In this document: piece by piece, positions 49,164-63,660 of the stretch
Layout of the letters: each line of letters starts with the position of its first letter
Position numbering within the stretch: the first letter of the stretch is position 1
Source of the DNA: Burkholderia savannae
GTDB taxonomy: Bacteria; Pseudomonadota; Gammaproteobacteria; Burkholderiales; Burkholderiaceae
NCBI RefSeq assembly: GCF_001524445.2
Contig: NZ_CP013418.1
Location: 1,984,001-2,048,000, forward strand
Length of the DNA: 64,000 nt
Direction: 5' to 3'
Program-made: the position numbers and the translations under genes
The notes under the pieces: model-generated
The model's database searches: none
Seen by the model: only the letters and a program-made list of their open reading frames with translations
What the model was told of the DNA's origin: nothing

Positions 49164-49302
49164 ATACACGTCACACGTCACACGTCACACGTCACACGTC
49201 ACACGTCACACGTCACACGTCACACGTCACACGTCACACGTCACACGTCACACGTCACACGTCACACGTCACACGTCACACGTCACACGTCACACGTCAC
49301 GT
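49164..49302 (+). repeat. heptamer VNTR (CACACGT)
   Basis: About 19 near-perfect copies of the seven-base unit CACACGT between the convergent GMC oxidoreductase and FAD-patatin genes. Because seven is not a multiple of three, the array reads as a HVTRHTS heptapeptide repeat in every frame. It just overlaps the last codons of the reverse-strand gene, so copy change could alter its terminus. Confidence 0.9.
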
Positions 49303-51570
49303 GCCGCGACGCCTGCGCCGATGATTCGCGCGGCCGTTCGCGAGCGCGACGAGCGCCGCGTCGTAGCCCTGCTTCTGCAATTGCGCGACCGCGTCCGACG
49401 AAAAATCGTAGTCCTCGATGAACGACAGCCGCCCGTCCCGATTCAGCGTGATCCGCGCAATGTCGAGCGCCCCGCGGTTGCCCATCAGCCGGATGTACAG
49501 CGGCTGCTGACGGATCTCGTTCGCGCTCTGCGCGTCGACGTGCGCGAGGATGCCGTCGACGAGATCGCCGAAATCGCTCGCGTATTCCTCGAAGCGCAGA
49601 TCGTTGCGCACGCGGTCCATGTAGGCGATTTCCTCGCGGCGCAGCATCACTTCGACGACGTTCGTCGGCAGCGTCTTCGTGCCCGAGAACAGATCGACGA
49701 TGAATACGCGCCCGCCGATCTGCCCGCACCGCTCGATCACCAGATCGAGCGGCGAATTGCTGACGACGCCGCCGTCCCAGTACGGCCGGCCGTCGACGAC
49801 GGTCCACGGCATCCCGGGCGGCAGGCTGCCGCTCGCGAGCAGATGCGCGGGGCTCAGGCGATCGACGTAGCTGTCGAAGATGCGCGGCTCGCCCGTCTCG
49901 ACGTCGACCGCGCTGATCAGCAGCCGCGTCGGGCTCACGCAGAGCGAATCGAAATCGACGTAGCGCGTGATCAGCTTCTCGATCGGCGATGCGTCGAAGA
50001 AGCTCGTCCATTTCGCGCGCAGCCGGTCGAGGTCGAAGCCGAGCCGAGACCATTGCGGCTTCAGGAAATTCGGCACGCCGAACCACAGCACGTAAGTGGA
50101 CAGCCACGCCTCATGCCACTGCGAGCCGTACGGCGACGGCAGCGCGATCGACAGCTCGCGCCAGAACGCTTCGAGCGCCTTCGCCGCGCCCGTCGGATGG
50201 CTCGCGACGATCGCGCCGTTGAACGCGCCGATCGACACCGCGGAGATCACGTCGGGCCGCACGCCGTGCTGCTCGAGCGCCTTGATCGCGCCGCATTCGA
50301 ACGCGCCGAGCGCGCCGCCGCCCTGCAGGATCAGCATCGTCTGCACCGGCAGCTTGTCGAGCGAAAAGTTCGGATCGCTCAATGTCGCCCGCTGCGCGGC
50401 GACGTTCACGTGCAGCCTGATCGCGTCGCTCAGCGCGGCGATCTCCACGGCCGGCCGGTCGATCGTGAACGCGGCGCGCAGCACGTCGTCGGCGAGATAG
50501 AGCAGCGCGTACGAGCGATCGTCGAACGCGCCGCGCTCTATCGTCTCCGTCGCGCCGACCGGATAGCCGACCAGGTTGTACGACAGCCCGAACACGCTGC
50601 CGTAAAAGATCGATATGTCGCGATACGGCAGCCGGTGGCCGAGCATGTTGCGCGCCGCGATCTTGCCCTGCCGCACCGCGTTGTCCCAATGCTCGATCCG
50701 CCGCCGCACGCCGAAGATCGGATCGTCGAAGTGCGCGGCGTCGCCCGCCGCGAACACGTTCGGATCGGCCGTCTGCAGGAACGCGTCGACTTCGATCCCG
50801 TTGCCGAGCGCGAGGCCGCTGCCTTCGAGCCAGCCGCAGTTCGGCGCGACGCCGACCGCCGCGACGAACAGGTCGCACGGCCGCGTCTCGCCGTCGCTCG
50901 TCTCGACCGCCTCGACGCGCTGCGCGCCGAGCACGCGGCGCACCTCGCGGCTCGTCAGCACGTCGATGCCGCGCGCCGTGCACAGCGCCTCGAAATGGCG
51001 CGCGAGCGCCGGCGCGCGCAGCGGCGGCATCAGCTCCGGCGCATGCTCGACGAGCGTCACCTGCAGGCCGAGCGCCTGCAGCGTCGCGGCGATCTCGACG
51101 CCGAGGAAGCCGCCGCCGAGCACGGTCGCGCGGCGCGCGTGCGCGGCTGCGTCCTTCAGCGTCTGCGCCTGCGCGATCGTGTGCAGCACGTGCACGCCGT
51201 CGAGCTCGATGCCCGGCAGCGCGGGCACCTTCGCGCTCGCGCCCGTCGCGATCAGCAGCTTGTGATAGCGGTACGCCGCGCCGTTCGACGCACGCACGAC
51301 CCGCTTCGCGAGATCGAGATGCTCGGCGCTCGCGCCGAGCACGACGTCGATGCGCTGCGACGCGTAGAACGCCGCGTCGTGCAGCGCGATGCTCGCGGCC
51401 TGCGCGGTGCCCATCAGGAATTCCTGGCTGAGCGGCGGGCGCTGATACGGCAGCACGGGTTCGCCGCACAGGATCGCGATACTCGCCGAAGCGTCCTCGC
51501 CGCGCAGCGACCGCGCGGCGGTGACGCTCGCGATGCCGCCGCCGACGAGCAGATAGTCGAATTCACGCAT
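49297..51570 (-). CDS. FAD-dependent oxidoreductase-patatin-like phospholipase fusion
   Basis: 757 residues. Residues 1-400 form a rubredoxin/ferredoxin-reductase-like FAD enzyme: YLLVGGGIASVTAARSLRGE, LIATGASAKVPALPG, ATVLGGGFLGVEIAATLQAL and NVFAAGDAAHFDD. From about 410 a patatin domain follows: LILQGGGALGAFECGAIKAL, the Ser segment ISAVSIGAFNGAIVASH (Ser about 445; GxSxG here is AVSIG) and the Asp of YWDGGVVSNSPLD (about 598). GGGAGG precedes the ATG. It follows the DksA-like gene by 60 bases and so probably shares its FNR-type promoter. Confidence 0.88.
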   Translation of the reverse strand: MREFDYLLVGGGIASVTAARSLRGEDASASIAILCGEPVLPYQRPPLSQEFLMGTAQAASIALHDAAFYASQRIDVVLGASAEHLDLAKRVVRASNGAAYRYHKLLIATGASAKVPALPGIELDGVHVLHTIAQAQTLKDAAAHARRATVLGGGFLGVEIAATLQALGLQVTLVEHAPELMPPLRAPALARHFEALCTARGIDVLTSREVRRVLGAQRVEAVETSDGETRPCDLFVAAVGVAPNCGWLEGSGLALGNGIEVDAFLQTADPNVFAAGDAAHFDDPIFGVRRRIEHWDNAVRQGKIAARNMLGHRLPYRDISIFYGSVFGLSYNLVGYPVGATETIERGAFDDRSYALLYLADDVLRAAFTIDRPAVEIAALSDAIRLHVNVAAQRATLSDPNFSLDKLPVQTMLILQGGGALGAFECGAIKALEQHGVRPDVISAVSIGAFNGAIVASHPTGAAKALEAFWRELSIALPSPYGSQWHEAWLSTYVLWFGVPNFLKPQWSRLGFDLDRLRAKWTSFFDASPIEKLITRYVDFDSLCVSPTRLLISAVDVETGEPRIFDSYVDRLSPAHLLASGSLPPGMPWTVVDGRPYWDGGVVSNSPLDLVIERCGQIGGRVFIVDLFSGTKTLPTNVVEVMLRREEIAYMDRVRNDLRFEEYASDFGDLVDGILAHVDAQSANEIRQQPLYIRLMGNRGALDIARITLNRDGRLSFIEDYDFSSDAVAQLQKQGYDAALVALANGRANHRRRRRGT

Positions 51571-51630: not shown

Positions 51631-52026
51631 TCACAGCGACGACCTCGGCAGCGTCGCGAACCGCCGCTCGTGCGCGTGCTGGCACGGCGCGCAACGCGAC
51701 GCGGTCGGACGCGCGAGCAGGCGCTCGTATTCGATCGGCTGCCTGCAGTCCGCGCAGTAGCCGTAGCCGCCCCGCGCGAGCCGCTCGAGCGCGGCGTCGA
51801 CGGCGCGCAGCTCGGCGAGTTTCATGCCGATCAGCGCATGGTCGACGTCGACGAACAGATTCGCGTTCGCCTCGTCGCCTTCGTCGGGCGCCGTGCCCGC
51901 GAGGTTCGCGTACGGTTCGTCGGCGCGCTGCCGCTCGCATGCGCGCACGTCGGCCTGGAGCACCTGCCTGCACGCATGCAGCAGATCGCTTAGAACCTGG
52001 AGTTGATGCTCGTCGAACGCTGCCAT
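51631..52026 (-). CDS. DksA/TraR-type zinc-finger protein
   Basis: 131-residue small DksA/TraR-family protein. N-terminal helices MAAFDEHQLQVLSDLLHACR; the DVDHALIGMKLAELRAVDAA segment; and the C4 zinc finger GYGYCADCRQPIEYERLLAR then SRCAPCQHAHERR. Family members bind RNA polymerase through the secondary channel and tune stress promoters. GGAGG before ATG 52026. First gene of a probable two-gene unit with the FAD-patatin fusion under the FNR-type box at 52305-52318. Confidence 0.88.
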   Translation of the reverse strand: MAAFDEHQLQVLSDLLHACRQVLQADVRACERQRADEPYANLAGTAPDEGDEANANLFVDVDHALIGMKLAELRAVDAALERLARGGYGYCADCRQPIEYERLLARPTASRCAPCQHAHERRFATLPRSSL

Positions 52027-52304
52027 CCGATCCTCCGCGTATTGCGTTGCCGCATCGGGTCCGCACCGACGGGCGGACGAGGCGGGCTGGTTGCTAGCCG
52101 CTCGTGCGCGTGTTTCGTGCGCGCGACAGGTTCGCGGCGCATGCGCCGCCCCTGTCGCGCGCGCCGCATGCGCCGCGCCCGACGAACGGGCGCGCCGGAA
52201 CGCCGGACGCCGATCCGTTTCCGTTTCCGTTTTTCGGACGCGGCGGCTCGGCGCGGCCTTCGGCCGATTGCTGCGCAAGCGTATGCCGAGCCGGCCCGCC
52301 GGCG

Positions 52305-52318
52305 TTGACTTGAGTCAA
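52305..52318 (-). promoter_or_regulatory. FNR/ANR-type box A
   Basis: TTGAC-TTGA-GTCAA, symmetric in both half-sites. On the reverse strand, with the centre at -41.5, the predicted start is near 52270 and the hexamer TACGCT stands close to the -10 position. Would drive the DksA-like and FAD-patatin genes under oxygen limitation. Confidence 0.6.
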
Positions 52319-52622
52319 TCGGCGCTCGCCGATGCGGCGGCTACGCGCCGCACCGCAGCGCGTTCCCGCCACGATGCCACCGCGCCGCGTCCGCCGCAAC
52401 GTGTCGCGCCGCATGTGCGCGGTGCAGCCCGCCGCCGCTTGCCGTCCGCGGCGCGGCGGCGCCGCCGCGCCGTATCGCCGCGCGGCCGTTCGCAGCGCCG
52501 CGACCGCCTGAACGCGAGGCGAAGCGCGACGCCGGTCCCCGCCGCGTTCCGCCGAGCCGAGGCCGCAACGGCGCGTCACAGCCAGCCGCCGCGCGCCGCG
52601 GCGAACGTCATCCGCCGCCTGC

Positions 52623-52636
52623 TTGACGATCGTCAA
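52623..52636 (+). promoter_or_regulatory. FNR/ANR-type box B
   Basis: TTGAC-GATC-GTCAA, a perfect palindrome. With the centre at -41.5 the start would be near 52671 and TAATCT (52658-52663) falls exactly at -10. Predicted to drive the PHB depolymerase and the ribonucleotide-reductase homologue. Confidence 0.7.
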
Positions 52637-52908
52637 AAACCCCGCGAGCCCGGCTTTTAATCTGGTCATGCGGCGCCCGCCGGCCTATTCTTTCCCCATC
52701 CGATGCGCAGCAAATCCGGCGCGCGGCGGCAGGCGCGCGGCGCTTGGCCGCCATCGCCGATGTCGCCTCGCGACAGCGGGCGCTTCGGCGCCGCAAGCGC
52801 CCCGCCCGCCGCAAGCGCCGCCCTCGCCGTCGCGCGCATGCCGCCACCCGCGGCCTACGCGCGACGCGGCCGCGGCGCCCGATCCCGCGCCGCCAGTAAG
52901 GAGATTCG

Positions 52909-54144
52909 ATGCTCTACGCGTGGCTTGAAGCGCAACGTGAATTCGTCCGGGCATGCCAGCCCTGGGCGGGCGCCGCGCAGCGCGCGGACACCAACTCGCG
53001 CCCGGCCGGCTGGCCGACATGGGGCCCGATGGCGCGCGCGGCCGACGCCGTGCCGGTGCCGCCGCCGTTCGCGATCGCGGCGGTCGCGAGCGGCGGCGCG
53101 GTCGTCCCGATCGACGAGCGCATCGTCGGCGACACACCGTTCTGCGCGCTGCGCAAGTTTTCCCGCCGGCTCCAGGGCGCAGCCGCCGCGCGCCCCGCGG
53201 TGTTTCTGTGCACGCCCCTCGCCGGGCACCACGCGGTGATGCTGCGCGAGACCGTCGAAACGCTGCTCGCGACGCGCGACGTCTACGTGACCGACTGGCG
53301 CAACGCGCGCGACGTCCCGCCCGAGGCGGGCGCGTTCGGCCTGGACGACTACGTGCTCACGCTCGAACGCTTCATCGCCGGCGCGAACGCGAACGGGCTG
53401 CACGTGATGGCGGTCTGCCAGGCGACGGTGCCCGCGCTCGCGGCGGCCGCGCTGCTTGCCGCGCGCGGCGTCCACGTCGCGAGCGTCGCGCTGCTCGGCG
53501 GCCCGATCGACACGCGCACGAGCCCGACGCTCGTCGATCGCTTCGCGCTCGAGCACGACCTCGACTGGTTCCGCCGTGCGGCGATCGACGTCGTGCCGCC
53601 GCCGTACGCGGGCGCGGGGCGGCGCGTCTATCCCGGCTTCGTTCAGCACGCGGCGATCGTCGTCGCGCACCCGCAGCGGCGCGTGTCGCTCGAAAGCCGC
53701 CTTTGGGCCGCGTGGATGACGGGCGACTTCGCGGGCGCCGCGCGCTGCCTGCGCGAGATGAACGAATACGGCGCGGTGCTCGACATGACGGAGCGCTATT
53801 TCCTCGACACGATCCGCGTGATCTTTCACGAATGCCTGCTCGCGGAGGGCCGCTGGTCGATCGGCCGCCGCCGCGTCGCGCCGGAGCGGCTCACGCGCAC
53901 CGCGCTCTGCACGATCGAAGGCGGCCGCGACGACATCTCCGGCGCCGGCCAGACGCACGCCGCGCAGCGGCTGTGCAACGCGCCGCCCGACGCCGCGCGC
54001 GAGCGGATCACCGAGCCGGACTGCGATCACTACGATCTCTTCCTCGGCCCGCGCTGGCAGCGATCGATCTATCCGGCGCTGGAGGCGTTCTGGACGCGCG
54101 CCGAAACGCCGGACTCGGACCACGCGCGCCGCGCCGCGCATTGA
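52909..54144 (+). CDS. phaZ: intracellular polyhydroxyalkanoate depolymerase (PhaZ1-like)
   Basis: 411-residue intracellular PHB depolymerase (PhaZ1 of Ralstonia/Burkholderia is about 420). N-terminus MLYAWLEAQREFVRACQPWA matches the family start; VFLCTPLAGHHAVMLRETVE and VYVTDWRNARDVPPEAGAF follow; the nucleophile is Cys170 in HVMAVCQATVPALAAA, a Cys replacing Ser as known for this group; the C-terminal region CDHYDLFLGPRWQRSIYP carries the catalytic His. Releases 3-hydroxybutyrate from storage granules, which would supply carbon and reductant under low oxygen. Confidence 0.9.
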   Translation: MLYAWLEAQREFVRACQPWAGAAQRADTNSRPAGWPTWGPMARAADAVPVPPPFAIAAVASGGAVVPIDERIVGDTPFCALRKFSRRLQGAAAARPAVFLCTPLAGHHAVMLRETVETLLATRDVYVTDWRNARDVPPEAGAFGLDDYVLTLERFIAGANANGLHVMAVCQATVPALAAAALLAARGVHVASVALLGGPIDTRTSPTLVDRFALEHDLDWFRRAAIDVVPPPYAGAGRRVYPGFVQHAAIVVAHPQRRVSLESRLWAAWMTGDFAGAARCLREMNEYGAVLDMTERYFLDTIRVIFHECLLAEGRWSIGRRRVAPERLTRTALCTIEGGRDDISGAGQTHAAQRLCNAPPDAARERITEPDCDHYDLFLGPRWQRSIYPALEAFWTRAETPDSDHARRAAH

Positions 54145-54267
54145 ATCGAGCATCGCGCCGCGCATCGGGCCGCCCGGCCCGGCCCGCGCACACGCCGCTT
54201 GCGGACGATCAACAAACGCACGCGCGCCGCTCGCCACACGGATTCGTTCGTCCGCATGATCGGCGTC

Positions 54268-56070
54268 ATGGACGACCAACCGATCTGCGACGCCGTATTC
54301 GCCGACCGCTATGCGCTGCCGGGCGAGAACTCGCGCTCCCAGGCGTTCGCGCGGGTCGCTCGCGCGCTCGCGCTCGCGGAGCCGGTCGCGACGCGCCCGG
54401 GCACCGCGCGGCGCTTCTACCGCAATCTGCTGACCGGCGCGCTCGGCGCGGGCAGCATCATGGCGCGCGCGGGCGCCGCGCAGGATCAGACGATGGCGAG
54501 CTGCTTCGTTCATCCGATCCGCGCGCCCGCCGCGCTCACGCGCTTTCATCCGGACCTCGACCAGGCGATCGACGAGGCTCGCCTCACGCTCGCGATGGGC
54601 GGCGACATCGGCTACGACTTCTCGGAGATCCCGCCCGCGAGCGCGCGGCCCGAAACCGACCGGTCGACGTCGCCCGGCGTGTGCGCGGCGCTCGACCGGT
54701 TCGACCGCATCGGCGCGCAGGCGGGCGAGCGCGACGGACGCCGCCGCGTGCAGCTCGCGGTGCTGCGCTGCGATCATCCGGACCTGCTCGCGTTCGCCGC
54801 CGCGAAGCGGGAGCACAAGCGGGAGCGCGCGTGCCGGGCGACGCTCGATCTCGCGGTGGCCGCCACCGATGCGTTCATGCTGGCGGTCGAGCAGGATCTG
54901 CCGTGGACGCTGCGGCATCCGGCGCCGCCGCAGGGCGCGCCGAGCGGCGCGCTGCCCGCCGCCGACGGCGCATGGACATACGCGACCGTGCCCGCGCGAC
55001 ATCTGTGGCGCGAGATCGTCGCGGCGGCGCGCGACGGCGCGGGGCCCGGGCTCGTGTTCGTCGACGCGATCGACGCCGCCGGCCCGCTGCGCGGCCGCGA
55101 GCGGATCGACGCGACGAGCCCGTGCGGCGCGCAGCCGCTGCCGCCGTACGGCAGCAGCATGCTCGGCGCGATCGATCTGTCGCGGTTCGTGCGCAATCCG
55201 TTCGGCGTCGGCGGCGAGCCGCGCTTCGATTTCGCCGCATTCGACGCGGCGGTGCGCGTCCAGGCGCGCTTTCTCGACAACGCGCTCGACGTCACGCGCT
55301 GGCCGCTCGCCGCGCATGCGCGCGAGTCGTATCAAAAGCGACGGATCGGCGTCGGCGTGACGGGGCTCGCGGACATGCTCGCGATGATGCGGCTGCGCTA
55401 CGACTCGCCGGCCGCGCGCGAGATGGCGCGCTACATCGCGTCCGATCTGCGCAATCATGCGTATGCGGCGTCGGCCGAGCTCGCCGCCGAGCGCGGCGCG
55501 TATCCGCTGTGCGACCGGCACGCGCACCTCGACGCGCTGCACGCGGGGCCGCCGCTGCCGCACGCGGTTCGCCACGCGATCGAGCGCGACGGGCTGCGCA
55601 ACAGCCATCTGACGTCGTTCGCGCCCGCCGTCGGCGTGAGCCTCGCGTTCGGGGACAACTGCTCGCCGGGCGTCGAGCCGGCGCACGCGTGGATCGAGCA
55701 CCGGGCGGTGCGCGCGGGCGCGGCGGGGATGCGCGCGGAGAACCACGCGCACCGGCTGTTCCGGTCGCTGCGCGGCGATCGCGTCGCGCTGCCCGACTAT
55801 TTCGCGACCGATGCGGACGTCGCGCCGAGCGAGCGCCTCGCGATGCGCGCGGCGCTGCAGCCTTATGTCGACGCGGGGGTCGAGAGCACGCTGACGCTCG
55901 CGAAGCATTACTCGCTCGAAGAGATCAATGCGCTGCTGTTCGGCGCATGGCGCGCGAAGCTGAAGAGCGTCGCGATACGGCGCACGGATCTCGCGCGCGA
56001 CGCGGGGGCGGGGGCGGGGGCGGGGGCGGGGGCGGGGGCGGGGGCGGGCGGCGAAGGCAGCGGCGTCTGA
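54268..56070 (+). CDS. class II (B12-dependent) ribonucleotide reductase homologue, degenerate active site
   Basis: 600 residues from MDDQPICDAVFADRYALPGE (other in-frame starts: ATG 54256, TTG 54199). Overall NrdJ-like: MASCFVHPI, AMGGDIGYDFSEIPP, QPLPPYGSSMLGAIDLSRFV, RRIGVGVTGLADML, SHLTSFAPAVGVSLAFGDNC. The radical-Cys loop, N-P-C-x-E in functional enzymes, reads SPCGA, so the catalytic Asn and Glu are replaced; a C-terminal CxxC is also absent. The end is a (Gly-Ala)n tail made by a GGGGGC hexamer repeat. Follows phaZ by 123 bases. Probably not a normal reductase. Confidence 0.8.
   Translation: MDDQPICDAVFADRYALPGENSRSQAFARVARALALAEPVATRPGTARRFYRNLLTGALGAGSIMARAGAAQDQTMASCFVHPIRAPAALTRFHPDLDQAIDEARLTLAMGGDIGYDFSEIPPASARPETDRSTSPGVCAALDRFDRIGAQAGERDGRRRVQLAVLRCDHPDLLAFAAAKREHKRERACRATLDLAVAATDAFMLAVEQDLPWTLRHPAPPQGAPSGALPAADGAWTYATVPARHLWREIVAAARDGAGPGLVFVDAIDAAGPLRGRERIDATSPCGAQPLPPYGSSMLGAIDLSRFVRNPFGVGGEPRFDFAAFDAAVRVQARFLDNALDVTRWPLAAHARESYQKRRIGVGVTGLADMLAMMRLRYDSPAAREMARYIASDLRNHAYAASAELAAERGAYPLCDRHAHLDALHAGPPLPHAVRHAIERDGLRNSHLTSFAPAVGVSLAFGDNCSPGVEPAHAWIEHRAVRAGAAGMRAENHAHRLFRSLRGDRVALPDYFATDADVAPSERLAMRAALQPYVDAGVESTLTLAKHYSLEEINALLFGAWRAKLKSVAIRRTDLARDAGAGAGAGAGAGAGAGGEGSGV
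55998..56049 (+). repeat. coding hexamer repeat (GGGGGC)
   Basis: Seven to eight tandem GGGGGC units within the last codons of the ribonucleotide-reductase homologue, encoding a Gly-Ala tail. Six-base units change length without frameshift, so strains may differ in tail length. Confidence 0.85.
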
Positions 56071-56095
56071 GGCCACGGGCGGCGCGCGCGAGCGC

Positions 56096-56109
56096 TTGAC
56101 CCACGTCAA
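56096..56109 (+). promoter_or_regulatory. FNR/ANR-type box C
   Basis: TTGAC-CCAC-GTCAA. Centre at -41.5 predicts a start near 56144, and TCGAAT (56132-56137) lies exactly at -10. This also argues that translation starts at 56238 and not at the upstream ATG 56136. Confidence 0.7.
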
Positions 56110-56237
56110 GCCGGCGCTCGCCGCAATCGGGTCGAATGACAACGGGCGCAATCGCGGCGCGGCGGTTTCCATGGCACGTCGACCGCGCGGCCGGCTGCGT
56201 CCCGTCCCGCGTGATCACGAACCCCGGAGGTGACGAG

Positions 56238-57935
56238 ATGCGCCGTGCGCGCCGACCGAAGCTCGCGCAATCCGCCGACATGCCGCGCCGCGCGCGCGCA
56301 GCCGCCATGCGCGGCAACGGCCCGCAGCGGCGGGCCGTGCGCGAGCGTGCGGCCCGCCGCCTGTCGCGCGACATCGACGCGACGCTGCGCCGCGCGTCGA
56401 CATACCCGCATCCGGCCGGCCGCATCGTGCGCATCGAAACGCACATCTCCGTCGTCTACCTTGTCGGACGCTTCGCGTACAAGCGCCTGAAGCCGTTCGA
56501 CTTCGGCTTCGCGAACTTCGGCGATCTGGCCGCGCGCCGCCGCGCGTGCGAAGCCGAGCTCGCGCTGAACCGCCCGCTCGCCGCGCCCATATATCTCGCG
56601 GCCGGCCCGATCGTGCGCCGCGCGCGCGGCCTTCGCCTGTTCGACGCGGGCGTCGCCGTCGATCATGTCGTCAAGATGCGCCGCTTCGACGAACGGATGC
56701 TGTTTTCCCGATTGCTCGCGCGCGGCGAGCTCGGCGCGGCGGACATCGACGCCGCCGCGACGCGCATCGCCGCATACCATCTGCACGCGCCGCGCGACGT
56801 TCCGCGGCGCGAGTACGGCGGCGCGCGCGAGCTGCGCAGGCAGATCGCGGACGTGTTCGCGCCGCTCGAGCGCGCACTCGGCACGGCGCTGCCCGCGCCG
56901 CTGCGCGCGTGGTGCGTGCGCCGCTGCGACGAGCTCGCCGCGCATCTCGACGTACGCCGCGCGAGCGGCTATGTCCGCGCGTGCCACGGCGACCTGCATC
57001 TCGACAACGTCGTGAAGCACGGCCGCGACGCGCTGATGTTCGATTGCATCGATTTCGACGACGCGCTGCGCTGGATCGACGTGATCAACGACCTGTCGTT
57101 TCTGCTGATGGATCTGCACGCGCACGGTCGCGCCGATCTCGCGCACCGGCTGCTGAACCGCTGGCTCGACGAGACGGGCGATTTCGCGGGCCTCGCCGCG
57201 CTGCCGCTGTACGTCGCGTACCGGGCGCTCGTGCGCGCGCTCGTCGCGACGATGCGCGGCGGCGGCGACGCCGCGGCGCGCGCCGCGCACATCGAGCGCG
57301 CGCGCAGGTATGTCGACGTCGCCGCGCGCGAGGCCCGCGCGCGCCGCCCGTGCCTGCTGCTGTGCCACGGCTATTCGGGCTCGGGCAAATCGGTGGCGAG
57401 CCGCGCGCTCGCCGACGTATGCGGCGCGATCCGGCTGTCGAGCGACAGCGAGCGCAAGCGCGCGCGACCGTTCGCGGCGGTCGACGCGCGGCCGCTGCCC
57501 GCCGCCGCGTACACGCCGCAACAGATCGATGCGCAATACGAGCGCCTGCGCGCGCTCGCGCGCGACGTGCTGCGCGCCGGCTACACGGCGCTCGTTGACG
57601 CGACGTTTCTCTCGCAGGCGCGCCGCGCGCGCTTCGTCGCGCTCGCACGCGAAATGGGCGTGCCCGTCTTCATTCTCGATTTCCGCGCGAGCCGCGCGTG
57701 TCTCGAAAAGCGCGTCGACGCGCGCGCCGCCGCGCAAAACGACCGTTCGGACGCGGGCGCGGCCGTGCTCGCGACGCAGCTCGCGAGCGCCGATCCGCTC
57801 GACGCCGACGAACGCGCACACACGATCGGCTTCGATACCGACGTGCCGCTGCAAGCAATCCGGTCGGCCGAATATTGGCGGCCGGTGCTCGACGCGCTCG
57901 ATACGGCCTCACTTGATGCCGCGACGACGAGTTGA
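56238..57935 (+). CDS. aminoglycoside-phosphotransferase-like and P-loop kinase fusion
   Basis: 565 residues, GGAGGTGACG before the ATG. The N-terminal half is a COG2187-type kinase-like domain: VVYLVGRFAYKRLKPFDFGF, catalytic loop VRACHGDLHLDNVV, metal-binding FDCIDFDDALRWIDVIND. The C-terminal part (from about 370) is a zeta-toxin/gluconate-kinase-like P-loop domain with Walker A LLCHGYSGSGKSVASRALAD, RLSSDSERKR and LVDATFLSQARRARF. Substrate unknown. The family occurs near universal stress and low-oxygen genes; FNR-type box C upstream supports that. Confidence 0.85.
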   Translation: MRRARRPKLAQSADMPRRARAAAMRGNGPQRRAVRERAARRLSRDIDATLRRASTYPHPAGRIVRIETHISVVYLVGRFAYKRLKPFDFGFANFGDLAARRRACEAELALNRPLAAPIYLAAGPIVRRARGLRLFDAGVAVDHVVKMRRFDERMLFSRLLARGELGAADIDAAATRIAAYHLHAPRDVPRREYGGARELRRQIADVFAPLERALGTALPAPLRAWCVRRCDELAAHLDVRRASGYVRACHGDLHLDNVVKHGRDALMFDCIDFDDALRWIDVINDLSFLLMDLHAHGRADLAHRLLNRWLDETGDFAGLAALPLYVAYRALVRALVATMRGGGDAAARAAHIERARRYVDVAAREARARRPCLLLCHGYSGSGKSVASRALADVCGAIRLSSDSERKRARPFAAVDARPLPAAAYTPQQIDAQYERLRALARDVLRAGYTALVDATFLSQARRARFVALAREMGVPVFILDFRASRACLEKRVDARAAAQNDRSDAGAAVLATQLASADPLDADERAHTIGFDTDVPLQAIRSAEYWRPVLDALDTASLDAATTS

Positions 57936-58314
57936 TGCCGAAAAGGCCCCGCGCCGGAAACGCTCGCCACTGTCGGATGAACCGCCTGGGTCTGATCAAT
58001 TGCGCTGCCGCGGCCGCCCATTTCATACCGGCAATACGTCGTACCGGATCGTATGATCTGACGAAGCGCGCCGCAGCGATACAGCGCATCCCGCCGACTG
58101 GCTCTGGTGCGACGCGAGCGCTCGCCCAACAGCTCAGCCATGCGGGCCGACGTTATCCACGACCCAGCCTTTGCAGGTCATCTCGACAACGTGCCGGTGC
58201 CCGTCGCACCCTATATGGAACCTTCCATTGCACGACATCGCTCGGATATAAAAAATATTCATCGAAGTCAATTCTTGGATTCTTGTTATTTCGATACGCG
58301 TACCTCGCGATTTT

Positions 58315-58473
58315 TTATTTAATCTCCTGTCGCGTCGTATCGGGGCAAACTCCATCGCCTCCGTCGCAGACTTTCGCGTACATCATGGCAATCACCAACC
58401 CGGCAATCGCCATAACAAGAACAACGGCGGGCCCGTCACCAATTTTGCCTTCCGGGATCGATTTGAATTCAAT
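58315..58473 (-). pseudogene. 5'-truncated small membrane protein fragment
   Basis: Reverse-strand frame reading IEFKSIPEGKIGDGPAVVLV then MAIAGLVIAMMYAKVCDGGD, GVCPDTTRQEIK and TAA. It has one membrane helix and a two-Cys tail, and protein-like composition, but is closed upstream by a stop at 58474 with no ATG/GTG/TTG before the internal Met at 58413 (32 residues). Probably a leftover of a transferred gene; family unknown. Confidence 0.35.
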
Positions 58474-58751
58474 TTACCATCCATCAAAGCAATTCACTCA
58501 CCGTCACACAATTCAAATCCACGCCCCCCGAAATACCTGACTTCCCGTCAAAGTTCGAATGAATCCCTCAATCGCATATGAAGCATTACAGGCCCGCTTT
58601 CCATATTTACCACCTCAATTAAAACAGATCGGTCTCGATGAGAAACGCACGCACCTTTGCTCCGGTTACAACGGGCGTCCATTCGGGCAGAAAGACATGC
58701 GTCCGCCAGCCCTACGACCGAGTGCGCGCTCCACCCGCCGCCCATCCCCCG

Positions 58752-58765
58752 TTGATCTGGGTCAA
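58752..58765 (+). promoter_or_regulatory. FNR/ANR-type box D
   Basis: TTGAT-CTGG-GTCAA. Centre at -41.5 predicts a start near 58800; TAGACT (58788-58793) is at -10. Upstream of the Acg-type nitroreductase and the overlapping SulP gene. Confidence 0.7.
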
Positions 58766-58888
58766 GCTCCGCCGGACGGCCGCTCCATAGACTGAAATCG
58801 GTCCTACACGATCCGCCCCGCCCTCGAATTCCGGCGCGTCGTACCCGCCCGCGCGCGGCCCCGCGCTTCCCGACAGGAGACCTGCAAC

Positions 58889-59920
58889 ATGGAAACATCC
58901 CCGCTCCAGACGACGACGCACGACGACATCCCCCCGTTCGATCCGTCGGCGAGCGTCGAGGACCAGCTGCGCCTCGCGATCCGCTACGCGATCCTCGCGC
59001 CGTCGAGCCACAACACGCAGCCGTGGCGCTTCATCCTCGGCGACGCGTCGGTGATGCTGTGCGCGGACCGGCTGCGCGCGCTGTCCGTCGTCGATCCGTA
59101 CGATCGCGAGCTGCTCATCAGCTGCGGCGCGGCGCTCTTCAATCTGCGCGTCGCGTTGAGCCGCTTCGGGTTCGCTTACTCGATCGACATGTTCCCGTCG
59201 ACGTCGGACCCGGACGTGATCGCGCTCGTGCGGCTCGATCCCCACGGCTACCACGACGAAAGTCTCGTGCCGCTGTTCGACGCGATCGTCGAGCGCGTGA
59301 CGACCCGCGCGCCGTTCGCGAGCGAGGCGGTGTCGTGCGAGGTCCAGCGCGCGCTCGTCGACGCCGGCGAGGCCGAAGGCGCGGAGATCGCGTGCGTGGA
59401 CGCGCCCGGCGCGCGCGACGAGATCGCCGAGATGATCGCCGACGCCGACCGCCTGCAGTTCGCCGATCCGCGCTTTCGCCGCGAGCTCGCGAACTGGGTG
59501 CATCCGCGCCGCCGCGACGACGGGATGCCGGCGTTCGCGGCCGGCGTGCCCGCGCTGCTCGACTTCGCGACGCCCGTCGTCGCGTCGGTGGTCCGCACGT
59601 TCGATCTCGGCGGCGGCATGGCGGCGATGCATCACAAGCTCGTCGACGGCTCGCCGCTCATCGTCGGCATCTCGACGGCGAGCGACGATCGCGACGCCTG
59701 GGTCGCGACCGGCCAGGCGCTCGAGCGCGTGCTGCTCGTCGCGACGGCCGCGGGGCTCACCGCGTCGTATCTGAATCAGCCGATCGAAATCGACACGCTG
59801 CGCGAGCGGCTGCGGCCGCTGCTGCACGTCGACGCGCATCCGCAGTTGCTGCTGCGCGTCGGACGCGGCCCGGTCGTCGCGCACGCGCCACGGCGTCCGC
59901 TGACGGACGTCGTGTCTTGA
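58889..59920 (+). CDS. Acg-type nitroreductase family protein
   Basis: 343 residues resembling the Acg family of mycobacterial dormancy genes, two-lobed nitroreductase-fold proteins that bind FMN. LAIRYAILAPSSHNTQPWRF is the family hallmark; RELLISCGAALFNLRVALSR and VATGQALERVLLVATAAGLT, ASYLNQPIE follow. In Acg itself the fold sequesters FMN instead of reducing nitro compounds (family knowledge). ACAGGAGACC precedes the ATG. Its TGA overlaps the TTG start of the SulP gene. Confidence 0.88.
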   Translation: METSPLQTTTHDDIPPFDPSASVEDQLRLAIRYAILAPSSHNTQPWRFILGDASVMLCADRLRALSVVDPYDRELLISCGAALFNLRVALSRFGFAYSIDMFPSTSDPDVIALVRLDPHGYHDESLVPLFDAIVERVTTRAPFASEAVSCEVQRALVDAGEAEGAEIACVDAPGARDEIAEMIADADRLQFADPRFRRELANWVHPRRRDDGMPAFAAGVPALLDFATPVVASVVRTFDLGGGMAAMHHKLVDGSPLIVGISTASDDRDAWVATGQALERVLLVATAAGLTASYLNQPIEIDTLRERLRPLLHVDAHPQLLLRVGRGPVVAHAPRRPLTDVVS

Positions 59921-61923
59921 TCGAGCGGGAACGCGCCGCGCGCGGACGGGACGCCGCGCGGCGCGGCGGAAGCGGCGGAAGCGGCGGAAGCGGTGGTGGC
60001 CGCGGCGATAGAGGAAGCGGCGGAAGTCGCGGCGATAGCGATCCTAGTGGCGGCGGCGACAGCGGTGGCAGCAGCGGCGGTAACGGAAGTGGCGGAAGTC
60101 GCGACGATAACCGCCGTATTGGCGGTAGCGGTGGCAGTGGCAGTGACAACCGCGGCGGCGGCACCGAATCATGGCGCCGCTGGCTGCCCGGCGTCGCGAC
60201 GCTGCGCACTTACCGGCGCGCGTGGCTCGCGCGCGATCTGTTCGCGGGCGTCGCGCTGACCGCCGTCCTCGTGCCGGTCGGCATGAGCTACGCGCAGGCG
60301 GCCGGCCTGCCCGTCGTCTCCGGCCTGTATGCGACGATCGCCGCGCTCGTCGGCTACGCGATCTTCGGGCCGAGCCGGATTCTCGTGCTCGGCCCCGATT
60401 CCGCGCTCGCCGCGCTGATCGCCGGCGCGGTCGCGCCGCTCGCGCACGGCGATCCCGCGCACGCGGTCGCGCTGTCGGCCGCGCTCGCGCTGATGTCGGG
60501 CGGCTTCTGCGTGCTCGCCGGGCTGCTGAAGCTCGGCTTCGTCACCGATCTGCTGTCCAAGCCGATTCAATACGGCTATCTGAACGGGCTCGCGCTGACG
60601 CTGATCGCGAGCCAGCTCCCGAGCCTGCTCGGCGCCGCGCCTTGCGGCGGCACGTTCGTCGACGAAGCGGCGAGCATCGCGGGCACCGTCGCGCAAAGCC
60701 GGATCGATATCGCATCGCTCGCGCTCGGCGGCGGCTGTCTTGCCGCCATCGTGTTGCTGCGGCGCGTCGCGCCCGCGTGGCCCGGCATTCTGATCGCGGT
60801 CGCCGCCGCGTCAGTGGCCGCCGCGTGGCTAGGGGCCGCGCCGGATCTGCACGTCGCAAACGCGCATGTCGCAAACGCGCACGTCGCAAACGCGCATGTC
60901 GCCCTCGTCGGCTCGCTTGCCGGCGTCATGCCGCCGCCCGGCCTGCCGTCGATCGCGCTCGCCGATGCGAGCCGGCTCGTCGCCGGCGCGCTCGCGATCG
61001 CGCTGGTGTCCGTTGCCGACATCAGCGTGCTGTCGCGCGTGTTCGCCGCCGACGACGGCCGCGAGACCGACCGCAATCAGGAGCTGATCGCGCTCGGCGC
61101 GGCGAACCTGCTCGCCGGCGCGCTGCGCGGCTGCGCGGTCAGCAGCAGTTCGTCGCGCACGCCCGTCGCGCTCGCGGCCGGCGCGCGCACGCAGCTGACG
61201 AGCGTCGTCGCGGCCGGCTGCATCGCGCTGCTGCTCGTCGCGCCGCTGCTGCTCGCCCGCGTGCCGCTCGCGGCGCTGTCGGCGGTCGTCGTCTATTCGG
61301 CGAGCGGCCTCGTCGACGTGCGCGCGATCGTCCGGCTCTACCGCGTGCGGCGCGGCGAGTGCGCGGTGTCGCTGCTGTGCTTCGCGGGCGTCGTGCTGCT
61401 CGGCGTGGTGCCGGGCATCCTGCTCGCGGTCGGGCTCTCGCTGCTGTCGTTCGTCTGGCGCGCGTGGCATCCGTATGACGCGGTGCTCGGCCGCGTCGAA
61501 GGCATGCACGGCTTTCACGACGTGTCGCGCCATCCGGACGCGGCTCTCACGCCCGGTCTCGTCGCGTTCCGCTGGGACGCGCCGCTGTTTCATGCGAACG
61601 CGACGATCTTTCGCGACCACGTGCGCGACGCGATCGCCGATGCCGATGCGCCGGTGCGCTGCGTCGTGATTGCGGCCGAGCCGATCACCGACGTCGACGT
61701 CACCGCCGCCGACATGCTCGCGACGCTGCGCGACGAGCTCGCCGCGCGCCGCATCACGCTGTACATCGCGGAGATGAAAGGGCCGGTCAAGGACCGGCTG
61801 CGCACGTACGGGCTCTTCGACAAGATCGGCGCGGATCACTTCTTTCCGACTGTGACGGACGCGGTTGCGCGCTTCGCGCAGGTGCGCAAGGACGCGGCGG
61901 CCGCGCGGCGGGCGCGGCGATGA
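59917..61923 (+). CDS. SulP family anion transporter with STAS domain
   Basis: 668 residues if started at the TTG overlapping the nitroreductase stop (TTGA). The first 85 residues are Gly/Ser/Asp/Arg low-complexity (RRGGSGGSGGSGGGRGDRGS), then the SulP core: LPGVATLRTYRRAWLARDLF, AGVALTAVLVPVGMSYAQAA, GLPVVSGLYATIAALVGYAI, FGPSRILVLGPDSALAAL. A C-terminal STAS domain spans about 545-650 (GLVAFRWDAPLFHANATIFR, DVDVTAADMLATLRDELA). An HVANA pentapeptide is repeated three times near residue 312. Carries sulfate, bicarbonate or a carboxylate; substrate not deducible. Confidence 0.9.
   Translation: MIERERAARGRDAARRGGSGGSGGSGGGRGDRGSGGSRGDSDPSGGGDSGGSSGGNGSGGSRDDNRRIGGSGGSGSDNRGGGTESWRRWLPGVATLRTYRRAWLARDLFAGVALTAVLVPVGMSYAQAAGLPVVSGLYATIAALVGYAIFGPSRILVLGPDSALAALIAGAVAPLAHGDPAHAVALSAALALMSGGFCVLAGLLKLGFVTDLLSKPIQYGYLNGLALTLIASQLPSLLGAAPCGGTFVDEAASIAGTVAQSRIDIASLALGGGCLAAIVLLRRVAPAWPGILIAVAAASVAAAWLGAAPDLHVANAHVANAHVANAHVALVGSLAGVMPPPGLPSIALADASRLVAGALAIALVSVADISVLSRVFAADDGRETDRNQELIALGAANLLAGALRGCAVSSSSSRTPVALAAGARTQLTSVVAAGCIALLLVAPLLLARVPLAALSAVVVYSASGLVDVRAIVRLYRVRRGECAVSLLCFAGVVLLGVVPGILLAVGLSLLSFVWRAWHPYDAVLGRVEGMHGFHDVSRHPDAALTPGLVAFRWDAPLFHANATIFRDHVRDAIADADAPVRCVVIAAEPITDVDVTAADMLATLRDELAARRITLYIAEMKGPVKDRLRTYGLFDKIGADHFFPTVTDAVARFAQVRKDAAAARRARR
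59960..60165 (+). repeat. Gly/Ser-coding low-complexity repeat in SulP N-terminus
   Basis: Degenerate GGCGGAAGC/GGCGGTAGC nine-base units. They would encode the Gly-Ser-rich N-terminal extension of the SulP protein if the TTG start is used. Confidence 0.7.
60849..60902 (+). repeat. 15-bp coding repeat (HVANA)
   Basis: Three and a half copies of a 15-base unit encoding HVANA inside the SulP gene, between predicted membrane helices. Units keep frame, so copy number may vary without loss of function. Confidence 0.85.
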
Positions 61924-63304: not shown

Positions 63305-63660
63305 GATCGGCCTCCGTTTTCATATGCAGGGCGCCCGCGCGCGGCGCGGCCGGCGCGCGACGGCGTTCCGGCAGCGCGGCGCGCAACGGCACGACACGAA
63401 ACGAAACGAGATGCGGTGAAGTGCCCGGTCCTGCGAGCGCTAAAGCGAACGGTCAGCGTCGCACGCGCGACCTTCGCGCATTCTGACGCACATCAACGTC
63501 AACGTCGGCGTCGGCGTCGGCGTCGACGTGGCGACGCGCACGCGCCGGCGCGCGACGCTTGATCGGGATCAGTTCGGCATCCGGCACACTCGCTATCGTT
63601 GACGAACGGACGCGCTCGCGCGCGGGTGCGGCGCGGCTTTCCCCTGTCTTGGAGACGGAC
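63305..63660. other. divergent spacer with weak FNR-like box
   Basis: 356 bases between the CBS gene and the nitroreductase gene. Contains CTGAC-GCAC-ATCAA at 63483-63496, one base short of the box consensus on the reverse strand, followed by a short GGCGTC hexamer repeat (63505-63525). No gene. Confidence 0.45.
63483..63496 (-). promoter_or_regulatory. weak FNR/ANR-like box E
   Basis: Reverse strand TTGAT-GTGC-GTCAG, nine of ten consensus positions. No good -10 hexamer is found at the expected distance in either direction, so it is only a candidate for the CBS and nitroreductase genes. Confidence 0.3.

What the first reader, a model, noticed from the sequence alone, without database searches (positions are those of the whole stretch)
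51631..61923. Compact FNR/ANR-type regulon with promoter geometry conserved at four sites
Four boxes TTGAY-N4-GTCAA (52305, 52623, 56096, 58752) each precede a gene or gene pair. Taking the box centre as -41.5, three have a recognisable -10 hexamer at the right place (TAATCT, TCGAAT, TAGACT) and the fourth has TACGCT close to it. Together they cover a DksA-like protein, FAD-patatin fusion, PHB depolymerase, ribonucleotide-reductase homologue, kinase fusion, Acg-like protein and SulP. This looks like a hypoxia survival locus comparable to the lxa locus recalled from Burkholderia cenocepacia.
Basis: partly seen in the sequence, partly recalled or inferred. Interest (0 to 1): 0.75.

Follow-up and report, generated by a model that had tools for sequence, protein, structure and literature searches.

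The report
Low-oxygen gene island, inactive-looking reductase
Four predicted oxygen-sensor binding sites in a Burkholderia chromosome look like real, precisely spaced promoters of a known kind of low-oxygen survival gene island, and one of the genes behind them is a nucleotide-building enzyme that has lost catalytic residues yet still appears to be preserved.

Summary
The four TTGAY-N4-GTCAA boxes exist exactly as described (4 found, 0.08 expected) and look functional. The genome has 68 such sites against 9 for the reversed pattern. In this genome and relatives a TANNNT hexamer sits 22-23 nt after such boxes far more often than at other offsets. All four boxes recur in one close relative and three of four in another. 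The genome encodes three ANR/FNR-like regulators. The island resembles the published lxa locus: its RNR-like gene is the homologue of lxa gene BCAM0310.

The unexpected part is that gene. In 27 of 27 other Burkholderia loci examined it has its own imperfect box (TTGCG/TTGAG-N4-GATCAA) plus TANNNT. In the window's clade (Burkholderia pseudomallei complex) that box remains (54199-54212) but the -10 is gone, and the protein has lost the conserved Asn and Glu beside the thiyl cysteine, usually a redox cysteine, and the C-terminal CxxC. Its frame stays open in 3 of 3 species with dN/dS 0.33-0.38. Best reading: an ordinary ANR-controlled hypoxia island holding a retained class II RNR pseudoenzyme. 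Expression and function are untested.

The parts
49297..51570 (-). FAD-dependent ferredoxin-reductase-like + patatin fusion, second gene behind dksA-like
   Evidence: Pfam Pyr_redox_2, Patatin, DUF3734; 90% identical in G021 and G017
51631..52026 (-). DksA/TraR-like C4 zinc-finger protein (131 aa), ATG 52026 behind GGAGG
   Evidence: PF01258; start and Shine-Dalgarno
52305..52318 (-). FNR/ANR box 1 (TTGACTCAAGTCAA read on minus) for dksA-like/FAD-patatin
   Evidence: present in G021, not in G017
52278..52283 (-). -10 TACGCT, offset 22; predicted start near 52271
52623..52636 (+). FNR/ANR box 2 for phaZ (and RNR-like gene)
   Evidence: conserved in G021 and G017
52658..52663 (+). -10 TAATCT, offset 22; predicted start near 52671
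52909..54144 (+). PhaZ-type polyhydroxyalkanoate depolymerase
   Evidence: TIGR01849 over cut-off, PF06850
54199..54212 (+). imperfect box TTGCGGACGATCAA: the likely ancestral promoter box of the RNR-like gene, whose -10 is lost in this clade
   Evidence: 3 of 3 species of the clade; 27 of 27 other loci keep box and TANNNT
54268..56070 (+). class II RNR-like protein (PRK06948) without several catalytic residues; ORF also open from TTG 54199
   Evidence: NF005401 1068 bits; PF02867; residue losses
55117..55131 (+). SPCGA in place of NPCGE (residues 307-311 from TTG 54199): Asn and Glu next to the thiyl Cys replaced
55156..55158 (+). Ser (residue 320) in place of the redox Cys (C333 of T. maritima RNR by alignment)
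56004..56045 (+). (GGGGGC)7 repeat coding an Ala-Gly tail where most relatives have CxxC
56096..56109 (+). FNR/ANR box 3 for the kinase fusion
   Evidence: conserved in G021 and G017
56132..56137 (+). -10-like TCGAAT, offset 23; predicted start near 56144
56238..57935 (+). kinase fusion: APH-like N-terminal part (motifs read by eye) + AAA_33 P-loop kinase
   Evidence: PF13671; sequence; start behind GGAGGTGA
58752..58765 (+). FNR/ANR box 4 for acg (and perhaps sulP)
   Evidence: conserved in G021 and G017
58788..58793 (+). -10 TAGACT, offset 23; predicted start near 58800
58889..59920 (+). Acg-family FMN oxidoreductase
   Evidence: NF047509 over cut-off; PDB 2ymv E 4.7e-33
60172..61923 (+). 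SulP/STAS transporter; start codon not resolved
   Evidence: PF00916, PF01740
62855..63304 (-). two-CBS-domain protein, same neighbour in G021 and G017
   Evidence: PF00571; Rv2626c among 29 PDB matches

Best explanation
The stretch is one of two dense clusters of ANR/FNR-type promoters on this replicon. Inferred mechanism: when oxygen falls, one or more of three ANR/FNR-like regulators regain their iron-sulphur cluster, bind the palindromic boxes centred near -41.5 and, as class II activators, recruit RNA polymerase to the -10 hexamer 22-23 nt downstream. This turns on short units: dksA-like/FAD-patatin, phaZ/RNR-like, the kinase fusion, acg (perhaps with sulP) and, just past the window, an Hsp20/DMSO-reductase region, serving survival without oxygen (stored-polymer use, redox enzymes, transport, transcriptional braking). 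Shown here: the sites, spacing, conservation, regulators' cysteines and gene families. Inferred: binding, oxygen response, physiology. Within the island the RNR homologue descends from an oxygen-independent class II reductase that other Burkholderia drive from its own ANR-type promoter. In the pseudomallei-complex lineage it sits behind phaZ, has lost its own -10 and has lost catalytic residues, while the genome also carries class I, long class II and class III reductases. It is most likely kept as a non-catalytic protein, perhaps a nucleotide-binding or partner-binding regulator (this last step is a guess).
For: Boxes and enrichment: (68 in the own genome, the highest of 65 genomes searched). 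Spacing: (own genome, 29 of its 68 boxes: 9 of 58 sides at offset 22, 1 at 23, six hits in all at the other 34 offsets; other loci, 72 boxes: 21 of 144 sides at 22, 2 at 23, seven elsewhere); without the window's boxes (7 of 25 boxes). Conservation. Regulators: (three proteins with C-X2-C-X5-C). lxa kinship. RNR promoter in relatives: 27 of 27 loci; 26 at offset 22, one at 23; 6 of 13 further Burkholderiaceae loci. Loss in the clade. Active-site loss. Constraint. Rate shift in the RNR gene but not the kinase fusion. Other RNRs.
Against: No expression, binding or oxygen data exist here. Box 1 is absent in G017 and box 3 lacks a TANNNT. The loci compared are related, so counts across species are not independent. 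In 7 of 13 further Burkholderiaceae loci and in 3 of 3 Achromobacter loci no such promoter was seen before the RNR-like gene. Its dN/dS inside the clade (0.33-0.38) is higher than in 12 pairs of other copies (0.15-0.25), so constraint is relaxed and slow decay is not excluded. One genome with class III RNR (G013) keeps an intact copy, and the DPCSE clade eroded without class III, so redundancy alone does not explain the loss.
Confidence: 0.8

Rival explanations
1. The RNR-like gene is a slowly dying relic: after class II and class III reductases made it redundant, its catalytic residues and promoter decayed and the rest is still on the way out.
For: Promoter -10, active-site residues and C-terminal tail are all lost. 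dN/dS is higher than in other copies. Copies elsewhere are reduced to a fragment (G058) or split over two frames (G063). Clade genomes also carry long NrdJ and NrdD.
Against: Frame open in 3 of 3 species; a rough neutral simulation at an assumed 0.1 changes per site gave 2.6 stops per branch and a chance of no stop in three branches near 0.00015. dN/dS is like that of neighbouring genes. The long branch lies on the stem, with low divergence after it.
Confidence: 0.3
2. The boxes are read mainly by a DNR-type (nitric-oxide-responding) or another CRP/FNR regulator rather than by oxygen-sensing ANR, so the island answers NO or nitrate.
For: Ten places pass the PF13545 cut-off in this genome, and the half-sites are shared by FNR, ANR and DNR (recalled). 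In B. pseudomallei RegAB and nitrate modulate FNR-family genes (PMC8191878, passages).
Against: Three cysteine-bearing ANR-like proteins are present. lxa is induced by low oxygen in B. cenocepacia (PMC6127331, PMC9733578, passages).
Confidence: 0.15
3. The RNR homologue is still a working reductase with unusual chemistry that does not need the conserved Asn, Glu and redox cysteines.
For: The thiyl cysteine and the first redox cysteine are kept; G021 also keeps the second redox cysteine; the model has mean pLDDT 79.
Against: 76 of 82 best-listed family members keep all five residues; 25 of 199 otherwise invariant columns changed, including a loop I take (from recall) to bind substrate phosphate.
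Confidence: 0.07
4. The four boxes are a chance cluster with no regulatory role.
For: Four in 6.46 kb arises somewhere in about 0.2% of random placements of 68 sites.
Against: Conservation of boxes and -10s in relatives and the sharp spacing peak.
Confidence: 0.02

Closest known systems
lxa (low-oxygen-activated) locus of Burkholderia cenocepacia, BCAM0275a-BCAM0323
   Same: RNR-like gene (BCAM0310 homologue); sulphate transporter, Hsp20 and polysaccharide deacetylase by family name; FNR boxes in relatives' RNR loci; ANR/CRP-type regulators proposed for it
   Different: Genes scanned in the island are PhaZ, FAD-patatin, kinase fusion, Acg and DksA-like, with no USP or PHA-synthesis gene among those scanned; the RNR homologue is catalytically depleted; a separate USP-bearing cluster lies 1 Mb away
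FNR/ANR class II promoters
   Same: TTGAY-N4-RTCAA palindrome, box about 41 bases upstream of the predicted start, -10 at a fixed place
   Different: Nothing fundamental; the RNR genes of relatives use a box with an imperfect left half (TTGCG in 26 of 27 loci)
Class II ribonucleotide reductase (NrdJ/NrdZ, e.g. Thermotoga maritima 1xje)
   Same: Homology over most of the length, thiyl cysteine and first redox cysteine kept
   Different: Asn, Glu, second redox Cys (most copies) and C-terminal CxxC lost in the window's clade
Mycobacterial DosR dormancy regulon
   Same: Class II RNR (nrdZ is in DosR: PMC4428469, passages), Acg-type oxidoreductase, CBS protein like Rv2626c, Hsp20
   Different: Different regulator (FNR/ANR against DosR) and different DNA sites; shared families suggest convergence. 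DosR membership of Acg and Rv2626c is recalled

Membership tests
FNR/ANR class II promoters | FNR-type palindrome | tested here: met
   4 of 4 exact; 68 against 9 in the genome
FNR/ANR class II promoters | Box near -41.5, i.e. fixed spacing to a -10 | tested here: met
   Offsets 22, 22, 23, 23; TANNNT in 3 of 4; peak at 22 in the boxes examined
FNR/ANR class II promoters | Cysteine-bearing FNR/ANR regulator in the genome | tested here: met
   Three proteins with C-X2-C-X5-C; two shown with the E-T-V-S-R recognition helix
FNR/ANR class II promoters | Oxygen-dependent transcription | not testable with these tools
   Needs expression data
lxa locus | Shared marker genes | tested here: inconclusive
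   RNR-like gene is the BCAM0310 homologue; SulP, Hsp20, polysaccharide deacetylase match by family name only; the other lxa genes were not searched for
lxa locus | Conserved gene order with lxa around the RNR-like gene | tested here: not met
   FtsH-RNR-PfkB order occurs in L068 but not in the window; G019 has RNR-kinase-SulP order as in the window
lxa locus | Strong low-oxygen induction | not testable with these tools
   Needs expression data
Class II ribonucleotide reductase as an enzyme | Thiyl Cys and first redox Cys | tested here: met
   C309 and C102, aligned to C322 and C134 of 1xje
Class II ribonucleotide reductase as an enzyme | Asn and Glu of the NxCxE active-site motif | tested here: not met
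   S307 and A311
Class II ribonucleotide reductase as an enzyme | Second redox Cys and C-terminal CxxC | tested here: not met
   Ser at 320 and no CxxC in the window copy; 63 of 82 family members have a C-terminal CxxC
DosR regulon | Control by DosR and its box | not tested
   Only gene families were compared

The most novel reading that the evidence does not exclude
A class II ribonucleotide reductase has been turned into a selected, non-catalytic protein inside an oxygen-controlled survival island of the Burkholderia pseudomallei complex: catalytic residues and its own promoter were lost in one burst, transcription passed to the phaZ promoter, and the fold is now kept to sense or bind nucleotides or to modulate another reductase under hypoxia.
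Probability: 0.4. Interest if true: 0.7.

Novelty: new variant of a known kind. Interest (0 to 1): 0.5.

Why it matters
The island extends the lxa-type low-oxygen programme to the pseudomallei complex with exact promoter predictions that one RNA-seq experiment can test. It may also offer a bacterial case of a ribonucleotide reductase large-subunit homologue stripped of catalysis but apparently retained, with an intact sister copy in a similar gene neighbourhood (G019) for comparison. Two questions become testable: what a reductase fold does without catalysis, and why hypoxia programmes keep recruiting RNR genes (BCAM0310 in lxa, nrdZ in DosR).

Tried and rejected
Rejected: a chance cluster. 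Rejected: that the exact TTGAY box upstream of the RNR gene in the cepacia-type genomes drives that gene. In 18 of the 23 loci with such a box a TANNNT lies at offset 22 on the far side, away from the RNR gene; that the far gene is pfkB was checked by Pfam in L068 only. The RNR gene has its own imperfect box. I first read the exact boxes as RNR promoters (note) and corrected this.

Considered: loss of the RNR active site because class III NrdD arrived. All three clade genomes have NrdD, but only 5 of 65 genomes have it, G013 has it with an intact copy, G028 has it without the RNR-like gene and the DPCSE genomes have none, so this is at best partial.

Led nowhere: nearest named records were missing from genome contigs and plasmids; PDB gave no match for the kinase fusion; structure comparison of the model could not be run; Sass et al. 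2013 is not held and is cited only through other papers. Literature searches for an inactive class II RNR or an RNR pseudoenzyme in bacteria listed one paper each, neither on point by title (listings only); a search for the RNR-like protein in Burkholderia listed two papers, of which PMC4981469 was read in part. This is not proof of absence.

Rows dropped or not examined: L026 (distant) and L060 (split gene) were left out of the tree. 29 of 68 genome boxes (those in fetched loci) entered the spacing test. The second RNR-like copies in G059 and G062 and the fragment in G058 were not fetched, so the 27 loci are not all copies in the genus. The family table covers 82 of the 120 listed proteins (of 2159 hits).
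Full report
What is there. The window is G000:C2:1984001-2048000 of a 7.43-Mb genome in three contigs. Protein names put it in the Burkholderia pseudomallei complex: the RNR-like protein is 87% identical to records named B. mayonis, B. pseudomallei and (partial) B. thailandensis. The four boxes are exact and enriched. The same pattern occurs 68 times in the genome against 9 for the reversed control, the highest count among the 65 genus genomes searched. Two more boxes lie 1.3 and 6.6 kb past the window end, near Hsp20, a DMSO-reductase-like operon and a polysaccharide deacetylase. A second cluster of seven boxes lies 1 Mb away at C2:1026826-1038940, with three universal stress proteins, a zinc alcohol dehydrogenase, DUF1488 and a response regulator. 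Random placement of 68 sites gave four in 6.46 kb in 42 of 20000 trials, six in 18.3 kb in 1, and seven in 12.1 kb in 0.

Promoter geometry. I counted TANNNT at every offset from 10 to 45 after the box on both sides. In 29 boxes of this genome (of 68) there were 9 hits at offset 22 and 1 at 23 among 58 sides, and six hits at the other 34 offsets together. In 72 boxes from 20 other loci (16 stretches of unnamed genus genomes, one of them this genome's own long-NrdJ region, and 4 named relatives) there were 21 at 22 and 2 at 23 among 144 sides, and seven elsewhere. Leaving out the window's own boxes, 7 of 25 boxes of this genome still have the hexamer at 22-23. Related loci are not independent, and only identical cores were removed; the 72 include the window's orthologues in G021 and G017. 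The window's four sites sit at 22 (TACGCT, TAATCT) and 23 (TCGAAT, TAGACT). Box and -10 are kept in G021 (four of four) and G017 (three of four); in G017 no box with up to two mismatches lies before dksA.

Regulators. PF00325 finds three proteins. All three have C-X2-C-X5-C near the N-terminus as in FNR/ANR, and two are shown with the E-T-V-S-R helix. B. pseudomallei is reported to have three FNR-type paralogues (PMC8191878, passages seen). B. cenocepacia H111 has two, and their double deletion abolishes anoxic survival (PMC9104464, abstract and passages).

Relation to lxa. PMC4981469 (Table 2 and passages) lists the lxa genes with expression changes between two isolates. BCAM0310 is a ribonucleotide reductase-like protein between a cell-division metallopeptidase (BCAM0309) and a phosphofructokinase (BCAM0311). 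In L068 (G033, a genus relative) the RNR-like gene lies between FtsH/M41 and PfkB genes, so that gene is the BCAM0310 counterpart. In G019 the RNR-like gene is followed by the kinase fusion and SulP, as in the window, and its NPCGE, redox Cys and C-terminal CxxC are intact. The window's arrangement is therefore best read as a remodelled relative of lxa, not lxa itself. The lxa low-oxygen induction and persistence role are taken from PMC6127331, PMC9733578 and PMC3759415 (passages); the original report is not held.

The RNR-like gene. It matches NF005401 with 1068 bits and aligns to T. maritima class II RNR (1xje). By that alignment the window has S307, A311 and S320 where the solved enzyme has N320, E324 and C333; C309 (C322) and C102 (C134) are kept. 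The catalytic roles of these residues are recalled. Among the 82 best-listed family proteins 76 keep all five residues, five (the window's own, B. mayonis, B. pseudomallei, a partial B. thailandensis and an unnamed 85%-identical partial) lack Asn, Glu and the second Cys, and one (B. ubonensis name) has Asp and Ser. In the genome set G021 keeps that second Cys while G017 and the window do not. Of 199 columns invariant in 16 other rows, 25 changed in all three clade rows; single other rows changed 0 to 13 columns that are invariant in the remaining 15. The C-terminal CxxC is gone, and in the window a (GGGGGC)7 repeat encodes an Ala-Gly tail.

Its promoter history. In 27 of 27 other Burkholderia loci fetched (L034-L060) a box TTGCG-N4-GATCAA (26) or TTGAG-N4-GATCAA (G019) precedes the gene with TANNNT at offset 22 (26 loci) or 23 (1). 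The exact TTGAY box seen in 23 of them has its TANNNT on the far side in 18, in L068 towards the divergent pfkB gene. Six of 13 further Burkholderiaceae loci have a one-mismatch box with TANNNT at offset 22; the other seven and three Achromobacter loci do not. In the window's clade the imperfect box persists at 54199-54212 in 3 of 3 species, but offset 22 reads CCACAC or CCACGC. The gene now begins 123 bases (from ATG 54268) behind the stop of phaZ, under box 2; co-transcription is inferred.

Selection. dN/dS inside the clade is 0.33, 0.34 and 0.38, against 0.12-0.41 for seven neighbouring genes and 0.15-0.25 for 12 pairs of other copies, four of them from the lineage that lacks the CxxC. A rough neutral simulation at an assumed 0.1 changes per site predicts 2.6 stops per branch; none is seen. 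In the tree the clade (support 100/100) hangs on a stem of 0.72 changes per site next to G019 at 0.26. G019 is 65-68% identical to three outgroup copies (two of them close to each other) but the clade only 56-59%, whereas for the kinase fusion, with one outgroup copy, G019 is no closer (50%) than the clade is (51-52%). The speed-up thus looks specific to the RNR gene. The AlphaFold2 model has mean pLDDT 79.2 and pTM 0.83; residues 1-24 and 598-623 are among the stretches under 50, which fits a later start codon and a loose tail. The structure comparison could not be run.

Other reductases. The genome has three PF02867 proteins: class I (C1), a long class II copy with NPCGE, YGCC and a C-terminal cysteine cluster (C2:1459742) and the window's, plus NrdD. 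The long class II copy has no exact box in the 19.5 kb around it and none with up to two mismatches just upstream. NrdD occurs in 5 of 65 genus genomes.

Conclusion. The regulon reading is sound and largely expected from lxa and ANR biology. What appears new is the promoter map for this clade, the imperfect but rigidly spaced promoter of the RNR-like gene in relatives, and the evidence that this gene became a retained, catalytically depleted protein. Function, oxygen response and enzymatic inactivity remain to be measured.

Noticed in passing
56004-56045: (GGGGGC)7 repeat coding the C-terminal tail of the RNR-like protein; the record P0003 (100% match, sources not shown) ends differently, so the repeat may vary between strains.
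   Followed up: partly
L016 (G000:C2:1022000-1041500): Second cluster of seven FNR-type boxes with three universal stress proteins, Zn-alcohol dehydrogenase, DUF1488 and a LuxR-type response regulator.
   Followed up: partly
L018 1714-7360 (just past the window): Hsp20 and a DMSO-reductase-like operon diverge from one FNR box; its TANNNT at offset 22 points towards Hsp20.
   Followed up: partly
L037, L039, L040 and P0012: A second RNR-like lineage (B. ubonensis type by name) has DPCSE instead of NPCGE and no C-terminal CxxC while keeping its ANR-type promoter: possible independent erosion.
   Followed up: partly
G058, G063, second copy in G062: Reduced RNR-like genes: a fragment (G058), a copy split over two frames (G063), and a copy whose match contains one TGA (G062:C3; position not looked at).
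   Followed up: no
65 genus genomes: Genomes with the RNR-like gene (31, counting the fragment and the split copy) have more FNR boxes (median 43) than those without (34, median 23), Mann-Whitney p 4e-9, not corrected for relatedness.
   Followed up: no
56136: The listed ATG of the kinase fusion lies inside its own -10; the start at 56238 has a strong Shine-Dalgarno sequence.
   Followed up: yes
63559-63572: One-mismatch box with TATCGT at offset 22, overlapping the listed TTG start of a nitroreductase-family ORF at the window end: a possible further promoter.
   Followed up: no
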